A model generated the notes under the pieces. That model was not told the origin of the DNA. It saw only the letters and a program-made list of their open reading frames with translations, and made no database searches. Below, in pieces: positions 14,906 to 22,717 of a stretch of 64,000 bases of DNA. The position numbers were made by a program, and so were the translations under genes. The stretch spans positions 1-64,000 of the forward strand of contig NZ_FNNA01000003.1 in NCBI RefSeq assembly GCF_900106665.1, written 5' to 3'. Within the stretch, counting starts at the first letter, position 1. The number at the start of each line of letters is the position of its first letter. Origin of the DNA: Paracoccus sanguinis (GTDB lineage Bacteria > Pseudomonadota > Alphaproteobacteria > Rhodobacterales > Rhodobacteraceae).

Positions 14906-16249
14906 TCAGACGGCGATCTTGGAGTCGTCGTCCGGGCCGAGCGGGCGGGTGTCGCCCTTGACCTGCCCGCCGCGCTTGCGCTTGGCCTTGGGCGTCTCGG
15001 CCTTGCCGGTGTGTTCATCCATGAAGTCGAGCACCAGCGGGCGGATGTTCAGCCGCCAGCTCTTGCCGGCGAAGATGCCGTAGTGGCCGGCGCCCGGTTC
15101 GAGGTGCTGGGCCTTGCGGTCGTCGGGCACGCCGGTGCAGAGCGCCAGCGCCGCGACGCACTGGCCGGGGGCCGAGATGTCGTCGTTGGCGCCCTCGACG
15201 GTCATCACCGCCACGTCGCGGATGGCGCCGATGTCGACCGGCTTGCCCTCGACCGAGAAGCTGTTCGAGGCGATCTCGCCGCGCTTGAAGATGCGGTCCA
15301 CGGTCGAGAGGTAGAACTCGGCCGTCATGTCCATCACGGCGAGGTATTCGTCGTAGAACTTGTTGTGCTTGTCGCCCTCGGACCCGGCGCCGGTGGCCTC
15401 GGCGAAGATCTTGTCCATGAAGGCCTTGCGGTGGGTGTCGGCGTTCATGGCGATGAAGGACGAGAGCTGCGCGAGGCCCGGATAGACCATCCGGCCGGCG
15501 CCGCGATACTTGAAGCCGACCTGCTGGATGGCGAGGTGCTCAAGCTCGCCCATCGTCACCCGGTTGCCGAAGTCGGTGACCTCGGTCGCGGCGGCGTCGG
15601 GGTCGATCGGGCCGCCGATCAGGGTCAGGGTGCGGGGCTGGGCGTCGGGGTTATCAGCCGCGAGGATCGCGGTCGCGGCCAGCGTCAGCGGGGCCGGCTG
15701 GCAGACCGCGATGACGTGCAGGTCGGGCCCGAGGTGGGACATGAAGTCGACGAGGTAGCGGGTGTAGTCCTCGACGTCGAACTTGCCCTCGCTCACCGGG
15801 ATGTCGCGGGCATTGTGCCAGTCCGTCACCCACACGTCGCAGTCGGGCAGGAGCGACGTCACCGTCGAGCGCAGCAGCGTGGCGTAGTGCCCCGACATCG
15901 GCGCGACCAGCAGCACCTTGCGCTCGGCCGGTTCGCGGCGGGCGACGCGGAAGCGGACGAGGTCGCCGAACGGGCGCTCGATCTCGGGCTCGACATAGAC
16001 GAGGTGGTCCTGGCCTTCGGACCCGGGGATCGGCGGGATCTCCCAGTCGGGCTTGATGACCATGCGGGCGAAGCTGCGTTCCGTCACCCGGCCCCAGGCC
16101 GAGAGCAGCTTGAACATCGGGGACGGGACTAGCGCGAAGATCGGGTAGGACGCAATCGCCCGGGCCGAGGCCCCCATCCATTCGTTGGTGTTCCGAAACG
16201 TCTCCATCGCGTCGTACGACACGATCCCTCGATAACCCTTGTACGCCAT
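14906..16249 (-). CDS. phaZ: Intracellular poly(3-hydroxybutyrate) depolymerase
   Basis: The start is ATG 16249, where the conserved 'MAYKGYRGIVSYDAMETFRN' begins; the frame is open further upstream without support. The 447-residue product matches intracellular PHB depolymerases. It contains the nucleophile segment 'LHVIAVCQPAPLTLAA' with the Cys of the C-Q-P box, 'YVEPEIERPFGDLVRF', 'MSGHYATLLRSTV' and a C-terminal catalytic-His region 'LEPGAGHYGIFAGKSWR'. A Lys/Arg-rich tail follows. It releases 3-hydroxybutyrate from storage granules. It is divergent from phaC with only 97 bp between the two starts, so the two are likely co-regulated. Confidence 0.92.
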   Translation of the reverse strand: MAYKGYRGIVSYDAMETFRNTNEWMGASARAIASYPIFALVPSPMFKLLSAWGRVTERSFARMVIKPDWEIPPIPGSEGQDHLVYVEPEIERPFGDLVRFRVARREPAERKVLLVAPMSGHYATLLRSTVTSLLPDCDVWVTDWHNARDIPVSEGKFDVEDYTRYLVDFMSHLGPDLHVIAVCQPAPLTLAATAILAADNPDAQPRTLTLIGGPIDPDAAATEVTDFGNRVTMGELEHLAIQQVGFKYRGAGRMVYPGLAQLSSFIAMNADTHRKAFMDKIFAEATGAGSEGDKHNKFYDEYLAVMDMTAEFYLSTVDRIFKRGEIASNSFSVEGKPVDIGAIRDVAVMTVEGANDDISAPGQCVAALALCTGVPDDRKAQHLEPGAGHYGIFAGKSWRLNIRPLVLDFMDEHTGKAETPKAKRKRGGQVKGDTRPLGPDDDSKIAV

Positions 16250-16346
16250 ATGCACCGTCCCTTTCCGCAGGCCGTCATGCAAAGTCCGGTTTACGCCTTT
16301 CGTCAACCGAGTCTTAATGGGGGTAGGGTAGGGAGGACAGCACGAC

Positions 16347-18815
16347 ATGGCCACGACGCGGGACGAGGGCGCACGGGATCAGGCGGACGGCACGGGTCCG
16401 GCAGGCGGGGCCGAGGGGGGCGCGACGGCGCCGCGCCGCGCCTCGGGTGCGGCGGCCCGGCGTCCGGCGAAGGCGCCAACGTCCGCCAAAGCCGCGGGCG
16501 GGGACGAGTCGGCTGGCGCCGACGGCGCGGCCGGGAAACGCGGGCGCGCCTCGGGACCGCGCGCGGCGAAGTCGTCCGCGGACGGGGCCGGGCGGAAGGG
16601 CGCCCGGGCGGCGGCTGAGGCCGACGGCGCGGCGACGGCGCGTGGGGCAGGGACCGCTGACGCGAAGGGCGGTGGCGATACGGCCGGACGGCGCGGCAAG
16701 GGGCCGGCCAAGGCGGACGGTGCCGCGACGAAAGCCGGGGGTGAGACGAAACGCCGCACTGCAGCAAAGTCGGATGCTGCACCTGCGAAGGCGGCGACTG
16801 CGACGGCGCGAAGCGCGCGCGGCGCCGCGGCCGAATCACGGCCCTCGACTGATTCTCAGCCCCAGCGGTTGGGTGACGAGGCCGCCGCGAAGACCGCCAA
16901 GCGGGACACGGAACGGACAGAAGAACGCGCCGAGACCGCCGCCGAACCCCAGCGCGCGCCGCAGTCCGGTCCCGCCGGTTACCGCGGCGACATGGCCACC
17001 GCCGCCAGCACCCTCGCCGCCACGGCCCCTGCGGACGACGAGGCCGCGCGCAATCCGCTCGCCATCGCCGGTCTGCCCGCCCGCCTCGCCGAGAACATCG
17101 AGCGGATCGAGGCCCTGGGGCAGCGGCTGCTGGCCGCGATGGCGGCCAAGCCCATGCACAGCCCGGCCGTCGAAGGTCCGGGGCCCGAGCTTTACGGCTC
17201 GGTCGCACAGGCGTGGCTGAAGCTTGCCACCGAGCAGCCGGCGCGGCTGATCGAGCAGCAGGTCCGCTACTGGGGCGAGACGCTGCGCCATGTCGCGGCG
17301 GCGCAGGGGGCCTTTGCCCGCAACCTCGCCGCGCCCGAGACGGACACCCCGCCCGACCGGCGCTTCAAGAACCCGCTGTGGACCACCAACCCGTTCTACA
17401 GCTTCGTCATGAACCAGTATCAGATCAACGCCGAGGCGATCCGCAAGGCGGCCGCCGATCTGGACATCCCCGACGAGACCGACCGCCGCCGGATCGACTG
17501 GTTCACCCGCCAGATGATCGACATGCTGGCGCCGACCAACTTCCTCGCCACCAACCCCGACGCGCTCGAGCGGGCGATCGAGACCGAGGGCGAGAGCCTC
17601 GTGCGCGGGCTCGAGAACCTGGTGCGCGACATCGAGGAGAACCGCGGCGACCTCGTCGTGTCGCTGTCGGACCGCAGCGCCTTCCGCGTCGGCGAGAACA
17701 TCGGCACCACGCCGGGCGAGGTCGTCTATCGCACCCCGATGCTCGAGCTGATCCAGTTCCGGCCGACCACCGAACAGGTGCACCGGACCCCGGTCATCGT
17801 GTTCCCGCCGTGGATCAACAAGTACTACATCATGGACCTCAAGCCGCAGAACAGCCTGCTGCGGTGGATCGTCGAGCAGGGCTATACGCTCTTCGTCGTG
17901 TCGTGGAAGAACCCCGGCACCGAGGCGGCCGAGCAATCGATGGACGACTATGTCTCGGCCTATCTCGACGTGGTCGGCAAGGTGCTCGAGCTGACGGACG
18001 AGCCGCAGCTCAATGCCGTCGGCTACTGCATCGCCGGGACGACGCTCTCGACCACGCTGGCGCTGATGCAGCAGAAGGACGATGACCGGATCAAGTCGGC
18101 CACGCTCTTCACGACGCTGACCGATTTTTCGGACCAGGGCGAGTTCACCACCTTCCTGCAGGACGATTTCGTCGGCGGGATCGAGGACGAGGTGGCGCGC
18201 ACCGGCTATCTGTCGGCGCAGCTCATGCAGCGGACCTTCAGCTTCCTGCGCGCCAATGACCTGGTTTGGGGGCCGGCGATCCGCAGCTATATGCTGGGCG
18301 AGGCACCGCCGGCGTTCGACCTGCTCTACTGGAACGGCGACGGCACCAACCTGCCTGGCAAGATGGTCACGCAGTATCTGCGCAACCTGTGCCAGAAGAA
18401 CGCACTCGCCGGCGAGGGGTTCGAGATCCTCGGCCACACGCTGCACCTGCGCGACGTGAAGGTGCCGATCTGCGCCGTCGCCTGCGAGGCCGACCACATC
18501 GCCCCCTGGCTGCACAGCTGGAAGGGCGTGGCGCAGATGGGCTCGGACGACCGGCGGTTCATCCTGTCCGAGTCCGGCCACATCGCCGGGATCATCAACC
18601 CGCCGACCAAGGTGAAATACGGGCACTACACCTCGGACGCCGGGTTCGGGGGCAGCGCCGACGACTGGCGCAAGGCGGCGCAGTACCACGAGGGCAGCTG
18701 GTGGAACCGCTGGGGTGATTGGCTGGCCGAGCGGTCCGGTCCGATGGTCCCGGCCCGCACACCCGCCGAGTCGCTCGGGCCGGCACCGGGAACCTACGTG
18801 CTTGAAAAGGCTTGA
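16347..18815 (+). CDS. phaC: Class I PHA synthase with a long Ala/Lys/Arg-rich N-terminal extension
   Basis: The catalytic part (from about residue 216, M at 16992) has the size and motifs of class I synthases. These are 'FKNPLWTTNPFYSFVMNQY', the lipase-like box 'VGYCIAGTTLSTTLALM' with the nucleophilic Cys, 'WNGDGTNLPGKM' and 'GHIAGIINPP' with the catalytic His. It polymerises 3-hydroxybutyryl-CoA on granules. I start it at 16347 because a strong AGGGAGGA lies before that ATG and none precedes 16992. This adds about 215 residues that are almost purely Ala, Gly, Lys, Arg and Asp, of low complexity and strongly basic, resembling histone-H1/PhaF-like tails. A start at 16992 would give the usual length of about 608. 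Confidence 0.9.
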   Translation: MATTRDEGARDQADGTGPAGGAEGGATAPRRASGAAARRPAKAPTSAKAAGGDESAGADGAAGKRGRASGPRAAKSSADGAGRKGARAAAEADGAATARGAGTADAKGGGDTAGRRGKGPAKADGAATKAGGETKRRTAAKSDAAPAKAATATARSARGAAAESRPSTDSQPQRLGDEAAAKTAKRDTERTEERAETAAEPQRAPQSGPAGYRGDMATAASTLAATAPADDEAARNPLAIAGLPARLAENIERIEALGQRLLAAMAAKPMHSPAVEGPGPELYGSVAQAWLKLATEQPARLIEQQVRYWGETLRHVAAAQGAFARNLAAPETDTPPDRRFKNPLWTTNPFYSFVMNQYQINAEAIRKAAADLDIPDETDRRRIDWFTRQMIDMLAPTNFLATNPDALERAIETEGESLVRGLENLVRDIEENRGDLVVSLSDRSAFRVGENIGTTPGEVVYRTPMLELIQFRPTTEQVHRTPVIVFPPWINKYYIMDLKPQNSLLRWIVEQGYTLFVVSWKNPGTEAAEQSMDDYVSAYLDVVGKVLELTDEPQLNAVGYCIAGTTLSTTLALMQQKDDDRIKSATLFTTLTDFSDQGEFTTFLQDDFVGGIEDEVARTGYLSAQLMQRTFSFLRANDLVWGPAIRSYMLGEAPPAFDLLYWNGDGTNLPGKMVTQYLRNLCQKNALAGEGFEILGHTLHLRDVKVPICAVACEADHIAPWLHSWKGVAQMGSDDRRFILSESGHIAGIINPPTKVKYGHYTSDAGFGGSADDWRKAAQYHEGSWWNRWGDWLAERSGPMVPARTPAESLGPAPGTYVLEKA

Positions 18816-18913
18816 TTGTTTGCCCGGGCCGGTGCGCCGGCCCAGGCGTTCCCCAAGCTGCGGCGCGCGCGCGTGCGGCAACCGCGGCGGGGACGGGAGA
18901 GGGGCAGAAATAT

Positions 18914-18932
18914 TTTGCTGCACCGCAGCAAA
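18914..18932. promoter_or_regulatory. PhaR-type operator upstream of phaP (site 1)
   Basis: TTTGCTGCACCGCAGCAAA is a perfect palindrome around ACC. It contains CTGC-N3-GCAG, the TGC-rich motif described for PhaR of Paracoccus and Rhodobacter. It lies about 85 bp ahead of the phaP start. Confidence 0.75.
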
Positions 18933-18940
18933 CCCTGTTG

Positions 18941-18961
18941 AAATGCTGCGACGCAGCATTT
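18941..18961. promoter_or_regulatory. PhaR-type operator upstream of phaP (site 2)
   Basis: A second perfect palindrome, AATGCTGCGACGCAGCATT (one more A/T pair on each side), also contains CTGC-N3-GCAG. The centres of the two sites are 28 bp apart, close to three helical turns, which would allow cooperative binding. Confidence 0.75.
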
Positions 18962-19016
18962 ATCAATGAGGGCAGACGACAAACCCGCGACCACCACGCT
19001 TACGAGGATGACTTCG

Positions 19017-19579: not shown

Positions 19580-19619
19580 GCAATTGCAACGCTGCGGCCG
19601 CAAACTTGCCGCAATTGCA
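19578..19619. promoter_or_regulatory. TGC-rich site cluster upstream of phaR (likely autoregulatory)
   Basis: The 42 bp hold three TGC-type elements: the palindrome TTGCAATTGCAA (19578-19589), GCTGCGGCCGCAA (19591-19603) and TTGCCGCAATTGCA. PhaR is known to bind TGC-rich DNA and repress its own gene; the match here is by pattern only. Confidence 0.55.
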
Positions 19620-19632
19620 CAGGACGCGGCCC

Positions 19633-20241
19633 ATGCCCCCCGAGAAGCCTACCGAGACCGACCAGCCCCCCCAGCCGCTGCTGATCAAGCGCTACGCGAG
19701 CCGCCGGCTCTACAACACCGAGAGCAGCGACTACATCACGCTGGACGACATCGCCCGGGTGATCCGCGAGGGGCGCGAGGTGCGGATCGTCGACCTGCGC
19801 TCGGGCGACGACCTGACCCGGCAGTACCTGCTGCAGATCATCGCCGAACACGAGGCCCGGGGCGAGAACGTCCTACCGGTCGACGTGCTGACCGACCTCG
19901 TGCGCAGCTATACCGCGCAGGCGCAGTCGGTGGTCCCGCAGTTCCTGGCCGCGAGCTTCGAGATGCTGCGCGACGGGCAGTCGAAGCTGCTCGAGCAGAT
20001 GACGAGCCTGCAGCATCCGATGGCGTCGATGCCCGGCTTCGCCGAGATGCAGCGCCAGCAGCAGGCCTTCCTGCGGGCGATGATCGGCGGCTGGTCCGGC
20101 AGCAGCGGACCTGCGCCGGACGACGACGGCGAGGCGCCCCAGGGCAAGCCGGCCGCCGAGGCCGCCCGGTCCCCCGCCGCCGAGGCCGAAGAGATCCGCC
20201 GCCAGCTCGCCGCCCTGCAGGACCGCATCGCGCGGCTTTGA
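19633..20241 (+). CDS. phaR: PHB synthesis regulator PhaR
   Basis: The start is ATG 19633, with AGGA eight bases upstream. The 202-residue product has the PhaR N-terminal DNA-binding domain ('LLIKRYASRRLYNTESSDYI', 'DDIARVIREGREVRIVDLRS') and the PHB-accumulation regulatory domain ('YLLQIIAEHEARGENVLPVD', 'LRSYTAQAQS'-like helices). A Gln/Met-rich segment and a charged C-terminal coiled coil follow. PhaR represses phaP and itself and leaves DNA when it binds PHB granules. It is the last gene of the pha cluster, just before tRNA-Ser. Confidence 0.92.
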   Translation: MPPEKPTETDQPPQPLLIKRYASRRLYNTESSDYITLDDIARVIREGREVRIVDLRSGDDLTRQYLLQIIAEHEARGENVLPVDVLTDLVRSYTAQAQSVVPQFLAASFEMLRDGQSKLLEQMTSLQHPMASMPGFAEMQRQQQAFLRAMIGGWSGSSGPAPDDDGEAPQGKPAAEAARSPAAEAEEIRRQLAALQDRIARL

Positions 20242-20905: not shown

Positions 20906-22717
20906 ATGTCCTATGCCTCTCGCACCATTGGTGCCGTGATCGATGACGTCAATCGAACCTATTTCCTGCCTGCGATCCAGCGTCCCTATGTATGGTCCAC
21001 CGGCCAGATCACCGCACTGTTCGATTCGCTGCTCAAAGGTTACCCAATCTCCAGCTTCATGTTCTGGGCGGTGGATGAGGACACCAAGGCCGAGCTGCGC
21101 TGCTACAAGTTCATCGAGAACTATCAGCCCGACTTGATGAACGAGCCGACCCGCGCCGAGGGGCGGCAGGTCATCCTGGTGCTTGACGGCCAGCAGCGTC
21201 TGACCTCGCTGCTGATCGGTTTGCGGGGGACCTTTTTGGAAAAGGCCAAGGGTAAAAGGCGCAGCAATCTCGCCGCCTGGTCGTCCAAGAGCCTGTACCT
21301 CGATCTTTTCAAGGATCCCGACCCCCGAACTCTGGATGAGGATGACGGCGACGAATTTGGCGTGACCTATGGCCTCGCCTTCCACGAGCGTCGTCCAGCA
21401 AACAACCATCGCAAACATTGGTTCAAGGTTGGTTCGATCCTGGACTACCCCACCGAGGAACGGCTCGAAGCCTTGATCGCCAAGGTAAAGACCGAGTTCC
21501 ACCCCGGCGTCTCGGACTGGGAAAAGACCCTTGCCGAAGACACGCTGCGCCGCCTCCATCGGGTGATCTGGCGCGACGAGGGCATCAACTTCTACACCGA
21601 ATACGATCAATCCGCCGACCGCGTGCTCGACATTTTCGTGCGCGCGAACGACGGCGGCACTAAGCTGTCAAAAGCCGATCTGCTGATGTCGATGATCACC
21701 TCGAAGTGGTCCAGCGGAACGGCGCGCGAGGATATCGGCGGGCTCGTTGACAGGATCAACAAAGGCATCGGCGCCCCGAACAAGATCACCCGGGATCTCG
21801 TGCTGAAAGCCTGTCTCGTGGTCTGCGATTACGATGTGGTCTATAACGTCCGCAACTTCACCACCGAAACCATCGCTGATATCGAGCGCAACTGGAATCG
21901 CATCGGGCTAGCCATCGAAAACACGTTCCGGCTGCTCAACCGGCACGGCCTGACCGGCGATAACCTCGGGTCTTTGAACGCGGTTCTACCCCTCGTCTAT
22001 TATATCTACCACACGCCGGAATTTGACTTCCGCGGCTCGACCGAGTTCGAGCGGGTGAACGCGTCGGCGATGCACTATTGGCTTCTGAACAGCCTGTTGG
22101 TCAGCGCCTTCGTGGGGCATTCGGACCAGACCATTGCCACGGCCCGCGCAACCGTTCGGGAACATCTGCGCGTTGCCCGTGACTTTCCTACGCATAAGCT
22201 TTTCGAGGCAATGGCGAAGGGGGGGCGGCTGTCGAAGGTGGATGAGCGGACTGTCGAAGAATTGCTGGAAATGCAATATGGCAAGCCACGGACATTCGTG
22301 GCGCTGTCGCTGCTCTATCAGGGTGTCGACTGGAACGGATCGACCTGGCATGTCGATCACATCATCCCACAGGCCGATGCGCAAAAGAACGTCCTGCGCG
22401 GCCGCAATCTGCCCGAGCACCGTATCGAGGAGATCGTTGCTGCCTCGAACAGTCTCGGGAACCTCCAGCTTTTGCGCAGCGACGAGAACATCGAGAAAGG
22501 TGCGCTTCCGTTTAGATCCTGGATTACCGGCAGGCGCAGAGACTTCTACGCACAGCACATGATTCCTGAGCGCCTGGAGCTTTGCGATGTTACCTCGCTT
22601 CCGGAGTTCGTCCGAGAACGAGAAAAACTGATCCGAAAACGACTTTTGCAACTGCTTGGTGGAGGAGAGGCCGTGAGCGAGGCTCCCATGCCGTATGCCC
22701 TGGAAGATCAGCGATAG
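20906..22717 (+). CDS. DUF262/DUF1524 (GmrSD-like) nuclease-type protein
   Basis: The 603-residue product has an N-terminal DUF262 ParB/Srx-like NTPase core ('YFLPAIQRPYVWSTGQITAL' near residue 18, 'VILVLDGQQRLTSLLIGLRG' near 88). It has 'RANDGGTKLSKADLLMSMI' in the middle and a C-terminal DUF1524 HNH-type nuclease ('TWHVDHIIPQA' near 485, then 'NSLGNLQLLRSDEN'). This order is that of GmrSD/BrxU-type type IV restriction enzymes, which cut modified phage DNA; other DUF262 proteins have other roles. The frame is intact. It is followed 9 bp later by a membrane-anchored protein gene, which is not a usual partner. Its position beside tRNA-Ser suggests acquisition by transfer. Confidence 0.88.
   Translation: MSYASRTIGAVIDDVNRTYFLPAIQRPYVWSTGQITALFDSLLKGYPISSFMFWAVDEDTKAELRCYKFIENYQPDLMNEPTRAEGRQVILVLDGQQRLTSLLIGLRGTFLEKAKGKRRSNLAAWSSKSLYLDLFKDPDPRTLDEDDGDEFGVTYGLAFHERRPANNHRKHWFKVGSILDYPTEERLEALIAKVKTEFHPGVSDWEKTLAEDTLRRLHRVIWRDEGINFYTEYDQSADRVLDIFVRANDGGTKLSKADLLMSMITSKWSSGTAREDIGGLVDRINKGIGAPNKITRDLVLKACLVVCDYDVVYNVRNFTTETIADIERNWNRIGLAIENTFRLLNRHGLTGDNLGSLNAVLPLVYYIYHTPEFDFRGSTEFERVNASAMHYWLLNSLLVSAFVGHSDQTIATARATVREHLRVARDFPTHKLFEAMAKGGRLSKVDERTVEELLEMQYGKPRTFVALSLLYQGVDWNGSTWHVDHIIPQADAQKNVLRGRNLPEHRIEEIVAASNSLGNLQLLRSDENIEKGALPFRSWITGRRRDFYAQHMIPERLELCDVTSLPEFVREREKLIRKRLLQLLGGGEAVSEAPMPYALEDQR

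What the first reader, a model, noticed from the sequence alone, without database searches (positions are those of the whole stretch)
16347..16991. 215-residue basic low-complexity extension on PHA synthase
The best ribosome-binding site places translation 645 bp before the normal PhaC start. The added part is almost entirely Ala/Gly/Lys/Arg/Asp, resembling histone-H1-like or PhaF/PhaM nucleoid-binding tails. It could attach nascent PHB granules to the nucleoid through the synthase itself, making a separate adaptor unnecessary.
Basis: partly seen in the sequence, partly recalled or inferred. Interest (0 to 1): 0.6.

Follow-up and report, generated by a model that had tools for sequence, protein, structure and literature searches.

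The report
Disordered tail on Paracoccus plastic-making enzyme
The enzyme that makes storage-plastic granules in Paracoccus bacteria carries a long, floppy, usually positively charged tail at its front end; evolution keeps it as protein while scrambling its sequence, and it may hold or space the granules, although in this species' own branch the positive charge is weak or lost.

Summary
The phaC ORF runs 16347-18815 (822 aa); its Shine-Dalgarno precedes ATG 16347, and ATG 16992 has none. The extension is genus-wide: 115 of 115 measurable Paracoccus loci (120 taken, 5 dropped) carry one, 48-343 aa. It is protein: the closest relative has no other in-frame ATG/GTG/TTG before the core, substitutions peak at codon position 3, 12 of 12 gaps are multiples of three (10 pairs), and dN/dS is 0.25-0.54 in 21 of 22 pairs. 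AlphaFold predicts no fold for it (pLDDT about 30).

The nucleoid-anchor reading is partly supported. Net charge is +5 or more in 94 of 115 tails, with lysine enriched, and similar Lys/Ala/Pro-rich tails occur on PhaC in six other alphaproteobacterial families. But this window's tail is only +12 over 215 aa, has no KPAA-type motif, and 11 of 17 species in its clade are net negative. P. denitrificans has a +18 tail, yet published microscopy shows mostly random granules. Nor is the idea new: a basic C-terminal tail on Cobetia PhaC2 was proposed in 2021 as a nucleoid anchor.

Verdict: a real, retained, disordered charged arm on the synthase; new variant of a known kind; mechanism untested.

The parts
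16331..16337 (+). Shine-Dalgarno GGGAGGA of the long phaC start
   Evidence: read. Across 115 Paracoccus loci, positions -16 to -11 before the chosen start are G in 77-113 of 115, and 114 of 115 have a purine triplet there. The start was picked partly by such a signal, so the count is not fully independent.
16347..16991 (+). N-terminal extension of PhaC, 215 residues, low-complexity, net +12, predicted disordered
   Evidence: composition; coding selection in relatives; null model; pLDDT about 30
16992..17072 (+). rest of the disordered N-terminus, from the proposed 'normal' start M216 to the residue before core residue 28; no RBS at 16992
   Evidence: residues 1-234 and 236-239 under pLDDT 50; start codon at this exact place in only 5 of 115 species
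17073..18812 (+). catalytic part of class I PHA synthase PhaC (PhaC_N + alpha/beta hydrolase)
   Evidence: TIGR01838 690.6 bits over cut-off 622.65, residues 295-819; PF07167 and PF00561
14906..16249 (-). divergent phaZ, intracellular PHB depolymerase
   Evidence: TIGR01849 554.5 bits
18966..19490 (+). phaP, phasin (weak Phasin_2)
   Evidence: PF09361 23.9 bits, cut-off 24.9
19606..20241 (+). phaR, PHA synthesis repressor
   Evidence: TIGR01848 154.9 bits

Best explanation
The extension is a genuine part of PhaC: a long, unfolded, highly charged arm carried by the chromosomal phaZ-phaC-phaP-phaR synthase, already present in the last common ancestor of the sampled Paracoccus and kept in every measurable species (shown). 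Because PhaC sits on the surface of the nascent granule (established for PhaC, recalled), the arms would form a hydrated charged fringe around it (inferred). Across the genus the arm is lysine-rich and cationic, so its likeliest action is weak, unspecific binding of polyanions, above all nucleoid DNA, possibly polyphosphate or RNA (inferred). In the window's own subclade net charge has weakened or reversed, so there what is kept is length, disorder and high charge density rather than positive sign: for this species I favour a colloidal or entropic spacer that keeps granules apart and PhaC soluble, with at most weak DNA contact (inferred).
For: Retention with in-frame scrambling: 115 of 115 measurable loci, 12 of 12 gaps multiples of three and substitutions 184/131/301 at codon positions 1/2/3 in 10 close pairs, dN/dS 0.25-0.54 in 21 of 22 close pairs against 0.03-0.20 in the core. 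Composition: Lys above random-DNA expectation in 114 of 115, Arg below it in 115 of 115, hydrophobics not above it in 111 of 115. No fold predicted. Positive net charge in 97 of 98 species outside the window's clade and 6 of 17 inside it. KPAA-like words in 80 of 115 tails against 38.6 in shuffles. Lys/Ala/Pro-rich N-terminal PhaC tails read in 16 further alphaproteobacterial genomes of six other families.
Against: No binding or localisation data for any of these tails. Constraint is weak, so part of the sequence may be free filler. Close pairs were aligned at protein level, which biases dN/dS down. One pair (L139/L151) has dN/dS 1.16 on very few changes. GC3 of the extension is barely above GC1/GC2, unlike the core. 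A conserved short motif in 31 of 115 tails suggests that in some species a specific partner matters more than a generic fringe.
Confidence: 0.55

Rival explanations
1. Synthase-borne nucleoid anchor in this species: the basic tail binds chromosomal DNA without sequence preference and ties nascent granules to the nucleoid, replacing PhaM or PhaF.
For: Tail disordered and charged; genus mostly basic; PF05597 not found in 125 of 125 Paracoccus genomes; PhaF and AlgP use Lys/Pro/Ala tails to position granules (PMC3574117, PMC9239181, passages); the same idea is in print for the Cobetia PhaC2 C-terminus (PMC8686332, passages).
Against: Window tail only +12 over 215 aa, against whole-protein charges of +35 for PhaF and +55 for AlgP (PMC9239181); no KPAA-type motif; 11 of 17 species of its clade net negative, to -41. 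In P. denitrificans, with a +18 tail, granules were mostly random and in one image excluded from the DNA (PMC8353029).
Confidence: 0.2
2. Specific partner-binding arm: the disordered tail displays a short motif (RARxxxRxDxRTxTRRKP) that binds a defined protein, RNA or polyphosphate; the rest is spacer.
For: The motif is in 26 of 26 species of one clade, 4 of 17 of the window's clade and in L119, 31 of 115 in all, against 0.0 on average (at most 1) in 50 shuffles; two more (L090, L091) have a variant read by eye. It survives in tails of net -28 and -41.
Against: Absent by the regular expression from 71 of the 72 remaining species and, clearly, from the window. Presence in one clade may be plain common descent.
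Confidence: 0.15
3. Tolerated filler: the tail is under only frame and solubility constraint and does nothing of its own; lysine- and alanine-rich junk accumulates because it does no harm.
For: Length 48-343 aa, sign of charge reversible, mean column identity 10%; dN/dS 0.25-0.54 is lax.
Against: Never lost in 115 measurable Paracoccus species; lysine far above what the base composition gives; similar tails on PhaC in other families.
Confidence: 0.2
4. Translation really starts at 16992 and the upstream stretch is untranslated leader.
For: ATG 16992 gives a PhaC of the usual alphaproteobacterial size. A 1,872-bp phaC ORF for P. denitrificans stands in an older paper (recalled, no call); an internal ATG of that species' gene would give 621 aa.
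Against: No Shine-Dalgarno at 16992 and a good one at 16347; seven species have no other in-frame start at all; third-position excess and in-frame gaps in relatives.
Confidence: 0.03

Closest known systems
Cobetia PhaC2 (class I PHA synthase with a 380-aa basic C-terminal extension; PMC8686332, passages)
   Same: Class I synthase with a long, mostly unordered, Lys/Arg-rich tail; AAKP motifs in some species; authors speculate DNA binding and replacement of PhaM as nucleoid anchor.
   Different: C-terminal there, N-terminal here. Cobetia tail pI 10.3 and weak HC2-domain hits; the window's tail is only +12 and has no Pfam hit. Not shown to be homologous.
PhaF of Pseudomonas (phasin with Lys-rich C-terminal DNA-binding tail; PMC3574117, PMC9239181, passages)
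   Same: Disordered charged tail on a granule-surface protein.
   Different: Separate phasin, C-terminal tail with KPAA-type repeats, whole-protein charge +35, DNA binding measured. PF05597 not found in 125 of 125 Paracoccus genomes.
PhaM of Ralstonia eutropha and PhaH of Caulobacter (PMC3556143, PMC13052382, passages)
   Same: Job proposed for the tail: tie PHB granules to the nucleoid and spread them over daughter cells.
   Different: Separate adaptor proteins; PhaM was found by its interaction with PhaC1; PhaH uses a helix-hairpin-helix. The 2025 review passages list PhaM, PhaF and PhaH only and name no synthase-borne tail.
AlgP of Pseudomonas aeruginosa (H1-like KPAA tail on polyphosphate granules; PMC9239181, passages)
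   Same: Low-complexity Lys/Ala/Pro tail on a storage granule; removing it changes granule number and spacing.
   Different: Polyphosphate granule, separate protein, C-terminal, +55.

Membership tests
Class I PHA synthase (PhaC) | full-length match to TIGR01838 over its cut-off | tested here: met
   690.6 bits against 622.65, profile positions 2-531 of 532
PhaF/PhaM-type nucleoid-granule adaptor | a protein separate from the synthase, with its own granule-binding domain | tested here: not met
   the tail is fused in frame to PhaC
PhaF/PhaM-type nucleoid-granule adaptor | strongly cationic tail with KPAA-type repeats | tested here: not met
   window: +12 over 215 aa, no KPAA-type word. Genus: 94 of 115 at +5 or more, 80 of 115 with such a word
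PhaF/PhaM-type nucleoid-granule adaptor | unspecific DNA binding | not testable with these tools
   needs a binding assay
PhaF/PhaM-type nucleoid-granule adaptor | positions granules at the nucleoid in the cell | not testable with these tools
   only published images of P. denitrificans, which do not favour it (PMC8353029, passages)
Histone H1 / Hc1 / HC2-like proteins | match to a histone-like Pfam family | tested here: not met
   no Pfam hit for the window's tail at E 1; over 115 tails only Extensin_1 in one at E 0.01. Low-complexity tails can escape such models.
Intrinsically disordered tail | no predicted fold, hydrophobics depleted | tested here: met
   pLDDT under 50 for residues 1-234; hydrophobics 1.4%

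The most novel reading that the evidence does not exclude
Charged, H1-like N-terminal arms fused to PHA synthase are a recurrent alphaproteobacterial device for placing or spacing granules that makes a separate PhaM/PhaF-type adaptor unnecessary, and in the window's branch of Paracoccus the arm has switched from a DNA-binding cationic form to neutral or acidic forms that serve another partner or a purely colloidal role.
Probability: 0.25. Interest if true: 0.7.

Novelty: new variant of a known kind. Interest (0 to 1): 0.5.

Why it matters
If the arms place granules, the synthase alone would suffice to position the organelle it makes, and Paracoccus (including the long-used P. denitrificans, whose PhaC would be about 773 aa) would be a simple system to test it: delete or swap one disordered arm. 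The natural series of 115 arms from +31 to -41 on nearly the same enzyme lets charge be separated from length and disorder. It also warns that PhaC start sites in this genus can be placed too far downstream.

Tried and rejected
Start at 16992: rejected. Chance open frame in GC-rich DNA: rejected by composition and by relatives. Known DNA-binding domain in the tail: none found. AT-hook-like words: in 1 of 115 tails against 0.4 in shuffles, so no signal. A histone-like reading of 'basic' as such: the positive charge of Arg alone is what random GC-rich DNA would give, so I rely on lysine. Extension as a family-wide trait: rejected; in the rows listed the open frames of non-Paracoccus orthologues are 597-652 aa apart from five. 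Read one by one, four of those five are antisense-of-phaZ artefacts and one (L201) has a real tail; among 80 outgroup loci only L201 has one. The first automatic tail label (8 changes) mislabelled L201, L234 and L250 as untailed and L226 and L228 as tailed; with labels set by reading, the tree needs 5 changes, of which well-supported branches force 4. L231-L250 and 20 of the 22 loci L209-L230 were chosen because their open frames were long, so they show that tails exist elsewhere but not how common they are.

Dropped from the 115: L097, L098, L131 (contig end), L193 (run of N), L197 (frame broken, two TGA in the core). Two partial matches (G096, G023) and the low-identity paralogues were not fetched; G101 and G103 had no match.

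Full report
WHAT IS THERE. The open frame 16347-18815 (+) encodes 822 residues without a stop. Residues 295-819 match the class I PHA synthase model TIGR01838 (690.6 bits, cut-off 622.65). The gene lies between divergent phaZ (14906-16249, -) and phaP, phaR downstream. GGGAGGA at 16331-16337 stands 9 bases before ATG 16347; no Shine-Dalgarno was found before ATG 16992. The extension of 215 residues is A64 G35 R25 T18 D15 K14 S12 P12 E12 Q5 plus L, M and Y: net +12, 71% A/G/K/R/D.

WHERE IT COMES FROM. The window belongs to Paracoccus: the nearest PhaC is that of P. sphaerophysae, 83% identical. Of 125 genomes in the genus, 123 have a PhaC match. I took 120 loci; five were dropped (three contig ends, one run of N, one broken frame). 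In the other 115 the extension before core residue 28 is 48-343 aa (median 167), with net charge from -41 to +31 (median +13): +5 or more in 94, -5 or less in 10, in between in 11. Among 80 outgroup loci of the same family, one (L201, another genus, unnamed) has such a tail; the four other long open frames read there are antisense to phaZ. The plasmid-borne PhaC of P. tegillarcae has none (annotated CDS of 584 codons).

IT IS PROTEIN. (1) In P. sphaerophysae and six other species no in-frame ATG, GTG or TTG exists besides the first; 28 of 115 have none in the last 45 codons before the core. (2) A G-rich Shine-Dalgarno is conserved before the chosen start (114 of 115), with the caveat that starts were picked partly by it. 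(3) In 10 close pairs substitutions fall 184/131/301 on codon positions 1/2/3 and 12 of 12 gaps are multiples of three. (4) In 22 disjoint closest pairs dN/dS is 0.25-0.54 in 21 and 1.16 in one with few changes; in the core it is 0.03-0.20; protein-level alignment of simple sequence biases it downwards. (5) Against random DNA of equal base content, Lys is higher in 114 of 115, Arg lower in 115 of 115, hydrophobics not higher in 111 of 115. Against this, GC3 of the extension is hardly above GC1 and GC2, and frames other than the coding one are open in 9-60 of 115, so openness alone would have been weak evidence.

SHAPE. AlphaFold2 on the window's PhaC with 37 relatives gives pLDDT under 50 for residues 1-234 and 236-239 (block means about 26-38 over the first 230 residues), and 523 of 822 residues at 70 or more, nearly all in the catalytic part. 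So the disordered region includes the stretch after M216. No Pfam family matches the tail; of 115 tails one matches Extensin_1 and none a histone family at E 0.01.

CHARGE ON THE TREE. In a tree of 115 Paracoccus PhaC cores and 12 outgroups the genus is one group. Outside the window's 17-species clade 97 of 98 tails are net positive; inside it 6 of 17 are positive and 11 negative. By eye this needs at least three sign changes. The window's clade is therefore the place in the genus where a DNA-binding role is least supported. A motif RARxxxRxDxRTxTRRKP is kept in 31 of 115 (26 of 26 of one clade, 4 of 17 of the window's clade, and L119), against 0.0 on average in 50 shuffles, even in tails of net -28 and -41; the window has no clear copy. 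KPAA-like words occur in 80 of 115 tails (38.6 expected by shuffling, at most 49), but not in the window's.

OTHER LINEAGES. Searches with TIGR01838 in 385 genomes of the class and 398 of the phylum gave 258 and 245 genomes with a match. I read 40 loci picked for long open frames, plus the two best matches. By reading, 16 of the 42 have a Lys/Arg/Ala/Pro-rich N-terminal tail: L223 and L231-L237 (family f63), L240, L241, L248, L250 (f70), L239 (f171), L238 (f176), L224 (f151), L230 (f91). On a 70-row tree with labels set by reading, tail presence needs 5 gains or losses, 4 of them forced by well-supported branches. More than one gain is likely but gains and losses are not separated, and the sample was chosen for tails.

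FUNCTION. Known PHB positioners are PhaM, PhaF and PhaH, separate proteins whose C-terminal end binds DNA (PMC13052382, passages; PMC3556143, passages; PMC3574117, passages). AlgP does a like job for polyphosphate granules with a KPAA tail (PMC9239181, passages). PF05597 (PhaF/PhaI) is found in 0 of 125 Paracoccus genomes; the named control genomes include no well-known PhaF carrier that rang, so the control is weak. In the window's genome PF09361 finds only the phaP next door, under its cut-off, and a chance-level hit. The window genus therefore shows no known adaptor by these models; PhaM and PhaH were not searched as such. P. denitrificans is genome G026 (exact 6,000-base match to its plasmid 1): its PhaC would be 773 aa with a 192-aa tail of +18 and the motif. 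For that species PMC8353029 reports mostly random granules, some more ordered, and one image with granules at the poles and DNA in the centre (abstract and passages). That is against a firm nucleoid anchor even where the tail is basic.

KNOWN OR NEW. The idea that a synthase's own basic tail replaces PhaM is in print for the C-terminal tail of Cobetia PhaC2 (PMC8686332, passages). I found no paper on an N-terminal tail of Paracoccus or other alphaproteobacterial PhaC: 'PHA synthase' + Paracoccus + 'N-terminal extension' gave 0 papers, 'polyhydroxyalkanoate synthase' + 'N-terminal extension' + Alphaproteobacteria gave 0, and the listings showed none by title or abstract. These cover open-licence PMC papers only.

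VERDICT. Real and retained; disordered; usually cationic in the genus; weakly so here. I hold a charged arm with colloidal and weak electrostatic action as likeliest (0.55), a true nucleoid anchor in this species at 0.2.

Noticed in passing
window 20906-22717 (+): GmrSD-type modification-dependent restriction endonuclease gene (PF03235 107.7 bits, PF07510 25.1 bits) downstream of phaR.
   Followed up: no
window 18905-18965: TGCTGC/GCAGCA repeats just before phaP, resembling PhaR operator sites of P. denitrificans (recalled).
   Followed up: no
window 16284-16330 and the same place in L002-L005: The phaZ-phaC intergenic DNA keeps the words GTTTACG..TTTCGTCAA...TTAATG in the close relatives read: a likely shared promoter or operator.
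   Followed up: no
L162, L110, L182, L190 tails: Repeated acidic words of the type SEADAPAS / SQVDAPES in this four-species group only (4 of 115), beside the conserved basic motif.
   Followed up: partly
L197 (G121): phaC with a frame break in the extension and two TGA in the core, while L106 (G120) is intact and very alike; pseudogene or sequencing error.
   Followed up: partly
L202-L205: Frames of 122-455 codons from the most upstream ATG, in frame with phaC, are antisense to phaZ and would fool an automatic start finder.
   Followed up: yes
L102 (P. denitrificans, G026): Internal ATG gives a 621-aa PhaC (1,866 nt), near the 1,872-bp ORF I recall from the older literature; the published start may be too far downstream.
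   Followed up: partly
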